From assembly GCA_028282725.1 (NCBI GenBank), contig JANQHF010000115.1, forward strand, positions 1 to 64,000: 64,000 nucleotides of DNA, given 5' to 3'. The DNA comes from Saprospiraceae bacterium (lineage in GTDB: Bacteria; Bacteroidota; Bacteroidia; Chitinophagales; Saprospiraceae). The notes under the pieces were generated by a model. That model made no database searches. It saw only the letters and a program-made list of their open reading frames with translations, and had not been told where the DNA came from. The position numbers and the translations under genes are program-made. Positions 1 to 809 of the stretch are shown in pieces; positions within the stretch are counted from its first letter, which is position 1; each line of letters opens with the position of its first letter.

Positions 1-116
1 TCAGCTTCCTTCAACCATACCCTCACGGATATAATCTTGCCGTTCAGCTAATGCTTCCCCTTGCCGGGTGCATAAAGGACTCTCACCTCCAAGTATCTGC
101 CCCATGCCGGGCGCAC
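1..116 (-). mobile_element. Group II intron, 5' end (class C-like), cut by window edge
   Basis: Read on the minus strand, the sequence from 116 downward begins GTGCGCCCGGCATGGG, the GUGYG-type 5' end of a group II intron. It continues with GGAGGTGAGAGTCC and later TTGAAGGAAGC, both of which I recognise from domain I of bacterial group II introns. The first intron base follows directly on the T-run of a Rho-independent terminator at 117-147, the known insertion preference of class C introns. Only the 5' part is inside the window. The reverse transcriptase/maturase and 3' end, if present, lie beyond position 1. The family call rests on the conserved 5' and domain I sequences. The class C assignment is an inference from the insertion site. 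Confidence 0.8.
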
Positions 117-147
117 AAAAAAAAAGGGTGCATCTTATGATACACCC
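117..147 (-). terminator. Rho-independent terminator of the 171-638 gene; intron target
   Basis: On the minus strand a hairpin GGGTGTATC-ATAA-GATGCACCC (147 to 126, one bulged base) is followed by nine T residues (125-117). It lies 24 bases downstream of the stop codon of the beta-barrel gene. A group II intron begins immediately after the T-run. Confidence 0.8.
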
Positions 148-170: not shown

Positions 171-638
171 TTAGAAATATACTCCTGCCGCAATTCCAAG
201 AGTTCCTCCGCCTCCTATGATAAACTTAGGTTCCACGAAAAACTCCAAATTGTCGCCTATGGGCATCGTACCATTTACTCCAATATTGATATTGGTACTG
301 TTGCCACCAACGTTGAAACCTAATCCGGTATCCGCACTTACATTGAATATATTAATACCTGCGAATGGTGTAATCCTGAAAGACTCCACATCACCAATGT
401 TGAATCCACTATAATGCACATCCAAATCAAGGGTCCATACAGTGATATCACTTTCAAAATAATAGGTGAAAGAGCCCTGTCCGGCCCAATCTTCATTGAA
501 AGAATAGTGTCCCTTACCTCCGATACCGAAATACGATCCGTCAAATAAAAGGGCCGCCTGTGGACCAAATTTGAACTGTGCAGAACTGGTGAAGGCAAAA
601 GCGCCTACGAATAAGGCAATAGCAAGTATCTTTTTCAT
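171..638 (-). CDS. Secreted outer-membrane beta-barrel-like protein
   Basis: This 155-residue protein starts with a clear signal peptide ([21 protein letters not shown]). The rest alternates glycine-rich and aromatic beta strands, for example residues 30-50 with [11 protein letters not shown] and later [12 protein letters not shown] and [13 protein letters not shown]. It ends in an aromatic residue (GVYF), as expected for small 8-strand outer-membrane barrels of the OmpA/OmpW-like fold common in Bacteroidota. The ATG at 638 directly begins the signal peptide. It is monocistronic, with its own terminator at 117-147, and is divergent from ftsX. The exact function is unknown. A structural or adhesion role in the outer membrane is only inferred. 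Confidence 0.75.
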
Positions 639-809
639 ATACGTCTTATTTTGGTTAATAATAGCACAATTTACATTTTTAGTTGGTCCACTAGTTACCC
701 ATTTTCGGTGATTTTTTTAACAATGTGAGCAAAGGAAGCTGTAAACTTGTACGTTACGTATGCATAATTTTCTAATATTTGCAGCGGATTTCACACTTTC
801 TGTGCCGTT

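What the first reader, a model, noticed from the sequence alone, without database searches (positions are those of the whole stretch)
1..147. Group IIC-like intron caught exactly at a transcription terminator
On the minus strand the order is gene stop, hairpin, nine T residues, then GTGCGCCCGG and typical group II domain I sequence. Insertion directly after a terminator stem is the signature of class C introns. Only the 5' 116 bases are in the window.
Basis: partly seen in the sequence, partly recalled or inferred. Interest (0 to 1): 0.55.

Follow-up and report, generated by a model that had tools for sequence, protein, structure and literature searches.

The report
Terminator-hugging mobile intron with capped tail
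The end of this window is the start of a self-splicing mobile intron that copies itself right behind gene terminators, an already known habit, but the introns of this lineage carry an unusual conserved knob on the domain that holds the splicing branch point.

Summary
On the minus strand, window 116..1 is the 5' end of a group IIC intron, directly behind a 9-bp terminator hairpin and nine T. The window starts at the end of contig C24, so the rest of this copy is not assembled. The same genome holds ten 5' junctions with ten different flanks, all directly behind a strong hairpin, plus nine 3' junctions. One copy (contig C94) encodes a class C-like reverse transcriptase/maturase without endonuclease domain. 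Another (C104) has lost the ORF, so trans-mobilisation is likely but inferred. All of this is a known kind of element.

The less expected part is domain VI. In this genome and at least six others of its family the domain is about 70-73 nt rather than 30-52 nt. It ends in a nearly invariant cap, CCUUUGCGG-N3-CCGYAGGU-YUAAA, on a stem that changes by compensation. A variant cap sits on an intron whose maturase belongs to a separate lineage. Rfam's domain V/VI model misses or under-scores the capped introns. I found no description of the cap, but only open papers were searched. Its function is unknown; a handle that positions domain VI is a hypothesis.

The parts
171..638 (-). 155-aa ORF (small secreted beta-rich protein by eye) whose terminator is the insertion site; stop codon at 173..171
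   Evidence: ORF list; no Pfam match
126..147 (-). intrinsic terminator hairpin GGGTGTATC-ATAA-GATGCACCC
   Evidence: terminator scan; fold -15.0 kcal/mol, 0 of 300 shuffles as low
117..125 (-). run of nine T = 5' exon end (insertion-site side)
   Evidence: sequence
1..116 (-). first 116 nt of a group IIC intron (5' splice site GTGCGCCCGG, start of domain I); cut by the contig end at position 1
   Evidence: ten copies in the genome; 95% identical to the C104 copy over window 1-126, which scores 131.5 bits to RF02001

Best explanation
The stretch is the 5' end of one copy of a group IIC mobile intron, an RNA enzyme plus reverse transcriptase/maturase, that has spread to at least ten places in this genome by inserting directly behind transcription terminators. 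Shown from sequence: the 5' end, the hairpin + T-rich sites, one complete maturase gene (C94), one ORF-less copy (C104), the 3' end with domain V, a bulged A in domain VI, and ...CTACTCGAT at the 3' end. Inferred from the known biology of class C introns: the spliced lariat with its maturase reverse-splices into terminator DNA, is copied to cDNA using a replication-fork primer, and ORF-less copies are moved in trans by the C94 protein. Shown from sequence: domain VI of this lineage carries an extra conserved bulged stem-loop (cap). Inferred, weakly: the cap gives domain VI a docking point that positions the branch A.
For: Ten 5' junctions, ten different flanks. All ten have a hairpin of -15.0 to -21.6 kcal/mol in the last 45 nt, 0 of 300 shuffles as low in each. 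Flanking genes include the rpoC end, katG and tRNA-Pro. RF02001 134 bits and RF01998 52.5 bits on C94. Maturase: RVT_1 + GIIM only, TIGR04416 390 bits against cut-off 300. PDB bits: GsI-IIC 402, 7uim 335, 5hhj 296, LtrA 141, 6me0 115. Nine 3' junctions with flank. C94 copy about 1915 nt; C104 copy about 667 nt. Class C insertion after terminators is in print (PMC4424553, PMC8919778, passages). Cap: 19 of 22 pattern hits in 398 family genomes sit on a domain V; stem covariation 17 pairs against 8.1 shuffled, 0 of 500 as high.
Against: No single contig carries one copy from 5' to 3' end, so full introns are inferred from matching pieces; C94 and C104 stop 9 nt after domain V. The window copy could have or lack the ORF. 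No empty site was found for the window locus: the related genomes matched the neighbouring genes, not the ORF next to the intron. EBS1-IBS1 pairing was not resolved. Splicing and mobility are not testable here. The relation of the cap to domain II is suggestive only (13 of 22 plain introns have a GNRA hairpin in domain II, 0 of 5 capped or contig-cut copies, not independent).
Confidence: 0.94

Rival explanations
1. The ten copies are dead remnants of an old burst: only 5' and 3' pieces remain and none is mobile now.
For: No copy is assembled end to end; in two related genomes the capped piece looks degenerate (G013 broken 3' half; G508 odd domain V).
Against: C94 has an intact 448-aa maturase with YADD; the other copies are 94-98% identical to the window over the matched parts; the contig breaks are what a short-read assembler does at repeats, with shared 99-nt contig ends.
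Confidence: 0.1
2. The element is a group II intron of another class that landed behind terminators by chance or by a related habit.
For: The Rfam D1-D4 models do not name the class; terminator-side insertion is also reported for IEP types g6, U1 and U2 (PMC8919778, passages).
Against: Ten of ten sites behind hairpins; GsI-IIC scores 2.8 times LtrA and 3.5 times 6me0; no endonuclease domain.
Confidence: 0.04
3. The cap is not a functional module; it is only a lineage marker inherited in a few related introns.
For: All capped genomes lie in one family; exact-cap sequences are few (11 distinct capped domain VI counted, one of them the variant).
Against: The arms just below the cap are 40-43% alike while the cap parts are 93-100% alike over seven representative sequences; an intron with a maturase from a separate branch has the cap with a compensatory change, GCC/GGC for GCGG/CCGY.
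Confidence: 0.3

Closest known systems
Class C (group IIC) introns such as B.h.I1, and the GsI-IIC intron RT (PDB 6ar1)
   Same: Insertion directly behind terminators, maturase without endonuclease domain, domain I-V sequence; best PDB relative
   Different: Domain VI is 70-73 nt with a conserved cap, instead of the plain 30-52 nt hairpin of the relatives compared here
Ta.it.I1 group IIC intron (PMC7161350, passages read)
   Same: Class C; [quoted passage not shown]
   Different: No such cap mentioned in the passages I read; domain II there carries a pi tetraloop, while the copies C94, C104, L035 and L036 have a short domain II without a GNRA hairpin
Thermosynechococcus elongatus intron family (PMC2882425, passages read)
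   Same: ORF-containing and ORF-less copies spread together; ORF-less ones driven by a maturase in trans
   Different: Those are not terminator-targeted class C introns (recalled); here trans action is inferred only

Membership tests
group IIC (class C) intron | Domain I-IV sequence and structure of a group II intron | tested here: met
   RF02001 134 and 131.5 bits, RF01998 52.5 and 49.9 bits on C94 and C104; window piece alone 20 bits, below gathering
group IIC (class C) intron | Maturase with RT and X domains, no endonuclease domain | tested here: met
   RVT_1 and GIIM are the only Pfam matches
group IIC (class C) intron | Maturase belongs to the class C clade | tested here: inconclusive
   PDB scores rank IIC proteins first; no tree with curated references of all classes was built
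group IIC (class C) intron | Insertion directly behind terminator (or attC) hairpins | tested here: met
   10 of 10 5' flanks
group IIC (class C) intron | Domain V and domain VI with bulged A at the 3' end | tested here: met
   Nine 3' junctions, bulged A in the folds; but Rfam RF00029 is below gathering (23.2 bits) and finds nothing genome-wide
group IIC (class C) intron | EBS1-IBS1 and EBS3-IBS3 exon recognition | not tested
   A loop AUCUCUAAAG could pair with the T-rich exon end by eye, not computed
group IIC (class C) intron | Splicing and mobility | not testable with these tools
   needs an assay
group IIC (class C) intron | Short plain domain VI hairpin, as in the relatives compared | tested here: not met
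   70-73 nt against 30-52 nt; I treat this as a variation seen among the sequences compared, not as a published defining feature

The most novel reading that the evidence does not exclude
The cap on domain VI is a separate RNA module that is shared between introns with distantly related maturases inside one bacterial family. It replaces the missing RNA contacts of class C introns, by docking domain VI onto the ribozyme, its maturase or a host factor, so that the branch A is positioned and copies can be served by another intron's maturase.
Probability: 0.3. Interest if true: 0.6.

Novelty: new variant of a known kind. Interest (0 to 1): 0.38.

Why it matters
The insertion habit is textbook, so the window finding itself adds one more well-behaved family of class C introns, with ten copies that break the assembly of a Bacteroidota genome. 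The cap matters because class C introns are thought to lack the RNA contacts that move domain VI between the two splicing steps (PMC7161350). A conserved extra element on exactly that domain gives a test of how the switch can be made. The standard domain V/VI model also under-scores or misses this lineage, so its copies, ORF-less ones above all, are easily overlooked.

Tried and rejected
Empty-site test for the window locus: related genomes (60 searched, 6 with a match including the own genome) matched the neighbouring genes, not the ORF beside the intron. It led nowhere.

Domain II as partner of the cap: GNRA hairpins of 4 or more pairs in 13 of 22 plain introns and 0 of 5 capped or contig-cut copies; rows with unknown domain VI (11) were left out of that comparison, 2 of them with such a hairpin. 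Not independent, so not claimed.

Terminator sites in relatives: a start motif was found in 26 of 51 loci examined, out of 58 fetched; I dropped 4 as misplaced (L035, L036, L048, L086). Of the other 22, by eye 13 follow a hairpin and T run, 2 have a hairpin with a weak T run (L055, L079) and 7 do not (L046, L065, L067, L070, L071, L072, L085).

Cap in viral contigs: 29 contigs hold the pattern, none beside a domain V or intron end, so taken as chance. In the family search 3 of 22 hits (G426, G303, G646) are not at a domain V, and the reversed control pattern gave 16 hits in the same genomes by my count of the table.

Rows left out of the cap alignment A1: G013, whose 3' half is broken, and the L209 variant (found later). 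G508 is included although its domain V looks degenerate.

Whether the cap is one clade on the maturase tree: 43 rows, label needs 2 changes; L209 is a long branch, so its place is unsure. The maturases of the exact-cap copies in G508, G607 and G457 C9 are missing or only a fragment. The Saprospiraceae name comes from two records whose contig lengths equal those of capped genomes (56000 for L035/G372, 11106 for L036/G580).

Searches for print; CCUUUGCGG in 0 papers, group II intron with Saprospir in 1 paper, a ribosomal protein tree paper by its title. The 2007 PNAS paper on terminator insertion is not held; I know it from the reference list of PMC4424553 and from recall.

Full report
What is in the window. 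On the minus strand a 155-aa ORF ends at 173..171, followed by a 9-bp hairpin at 147..126, nine T at 125..117, and GTGCGCCCGGCATGGGGCAG... from 116 to 1. Window base 1 is the first base of contig C24 of an assembly of 5,061,129 bases in 139 contigs, so the rest of this copy is not in hand. Rfam on the window alone finds group-II-D1D4-3 at 32..1 with 20 bits, below the gathering score of 32, cut at the end.

The other copies settle the identity. The 147 bases match ten places in the genome: C24 (the window), C28, C4, C104, C94, C131, C109, C65, C110 and C40. Each begins with GTGCGCCCGGCATG after a different flank. Eight of the ten matches lie within about 160 bases of a contig end, C104 about 0.6 kb and C94 about 1.9 kb from one, as expected when repeats stop an assembler. 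In all ten, the last 45 nt before the intron fold at -15.0 to -21.6 kcal/mol and 0 of 300 shuffles of each is as low. In the same flanks, 2000 control 45-mers average -6.6, with the 1% point at -16.3; so the window's own -15.0 is the weakest of the ten and a little above that 1% point. The T-rich tail ends at the intron but is not always pure T (for example TTTTAT, TTTTTTC, TTTCTATTT). Upstream genes include the end of rpoC on C94 and a catalase/peroxidase on C104, and tRNA-Pro on C65.

One copy carries the maturase. C94 reads from the 5' end through domains I-IV (RF02001 134 bits, RF01998 52.5 bits), a 448-aa ORF and domain V to 9 nt beyond it. The protein has RVT_1 and GIIM and no endonuclease domain, and matches TIGR04416 at 390 bits, cut-off 300. 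Among solved proteins the best are the group IIC enzyme GsI-IIC (402 bits) and 7uim (335), against 141 for LtrA and 115 for 6me0. That 7uim, 5hhj and 5hhl are class C is recalled.

One copy has lost the ORF. C104 reads from its 5' flank to the same point after domain V in 605 nt; with the 3' end seen on other contigs an intron is about 667 nt, against about 1915 nt for C94. C55 and C132 share the ORF-less sequence before domain V, so at least two 3' ends belong to that form. The window copy shares ATTATATCCGTGAGG with C104, C28 and C4, and the others share ATCATACTCGTAAGG with C94 as far as they reach. Whether the window copy has the ORF cannot be told. ORF-less introns in bacteria usually live beside a related maturase that may act in trans (PMC4424553, passages; PMC2882425, passages). 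That is the likely state here, inferred.

The 3' ends. Eleven places match the last 200 nt of the C94 copy and eleven match a domain V/VI query. Two of these are the 5'-side pieces on C94 and C104; nine run through domain VI to ...TCTACTCGAT and then differ from each other. With the ten 5' junctions there are at least ten insertions.

Domain VI is unusual. After domain V, this genome has GTAAAAGTAGAACATACT-CCTTTGCGGGTTCCCGTAGGTCTAAA-AGATTGTTTTACTTTACTCTACTCGAT. Most relatives have a plain hairpin of 30 to 52 nt. The closest maturase relatives, L035 and L036, titled Saprospiraceae, have a stem of different sequence under the same cap. A pattern for the cap hit 3 of 396 genomes of the order, 11 of 398 of the family with a slightly wider pattern, and 1 of 395 of the phylum with a longer pattern, the own genome only. 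In the family search 19 of 22 hits, in 8 genomes, lie directly behind a domain V; the 3 others, in 3 genomes, do not. One of the 8 (G013) has a broken 3' half, so seven genomes including this one keep the whole exact cap.

Structure of the cap. Seven representative sequences all fold into a long stem with a CCU/AGG + UU bulge + GCGG/CCGY hairpin and a 3' unpaired UYUAAA; the energies lie 3.6 to 7.1 standard deviations below shuffles. On 11 distinct rows and 30 pairs, 93.6% of cells pair (82.8% shuffled), 17 pairs have a change on both sides (8.1 shuffled, 0 of 500 as high), and slid versions pair at 42-52%. These changes lie in the stem; in the cap itself 6 of 7 pairs never vary and 1 varies on one side, so in those rows covariation supports the stem, and the cap rests on conservation. 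Between seven sequences the arms below the cap are 40 and 43% alike, the cap parts 100 and 93%. A looser pattern over all loci held (1.6 Mb, both strands) gave 11 distinct matches, all behind a domain V. One of them, on L209, changes both sides of the upper cap helix (GCC/GGC). Capped domain VI is 70-73 nt (11 distinct, the L209 variant included), plain 30-52 nt (37 distinct, some near-copies from one genome); G508 and G013 fell outside that count.

Spread of the cap. In a 43-row maturase tree C94, L035 and L036 form one supported group, while L209 falls with Bacillaceae proteins (99/97); the cap label needs two changes. L209 is a long branch, so this is a lead. The exact-cap copy on G457 C9 ends in a fragment resembling the L209/L211 type rather than the C94 type, which points the same way. 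Plain introns also occur in the family (for example L051, L052 and L210), so the host does not impose the cap.

Annotation. Rfam's domain V/VI model RF00029 finds nothing in this whole genome at E 0.001 and 23.2 bits on the C55 3' end (gathering 40). Of the loci given, 7 of 8 plain ones (L037, L038, L039, L041, L045, L047, L049; not L052) pass gathering. None of 5 capped ones does (L035 31.4, L194 38.9, no listed match for L036, L025 or L195, the last cut within domain V).

How it probably works. Class C introns insert behind terminators and use replication-fork primers because they lack the endonuclease (PMC4424553, passages), and they are thought to do little harm there (PMC8919778, passages). 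They lack the eta-eta' contact and need the maturase to position domain VI (PMC7161350, passages). A conserved element on domain VI could supply a contact to RNA, maturase or host factor. This is a hypothesis: no partner was found, and the domain II comparison is only suggestive.

Verdict. The added domain VI variant is what is worth a second look.

Noticed in passing
L154 (G001:C61:2400-3858), also L095: In a genome of the same genus an ORF-less group II intron ends in CTACTCGAT and is followed at once by a second copy of the same intron start (GTGTGCCTGGCATG): a head-to-tail tandem insertion.
   Followed up: partly
L012 (G000:C78) and L013 (G000:C101): Two more reverse transcriptase genes of this genome each sit beside a Cas1 gene (170 and 220 bits) and a Cas6b-like gene (the L012 one slightly below the Pfam cut-off): likely RT-Cas1-Cas6 CRISPR adaptation loci.
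   Followed up: partly
L014 (G000:C2:48783-52280): A fourth, shorter reverse transcriptase ORF (282 aa) of unassigned type.
   Followed up: no
G000:C94 both ends: The first and last 99 bases of contig C94 are the same intron stretch in the same direction, so the contig looks circular in the assembly graph although it carries rpoC; most likely a repeat artefact.
   Followed up: no
L193 (G508:C209, about 590-760, minus strand): A 3' intron fragment with what looks like an inserted hairpin inside domain V, yet an intact domain VI cap.
   Followed up: no
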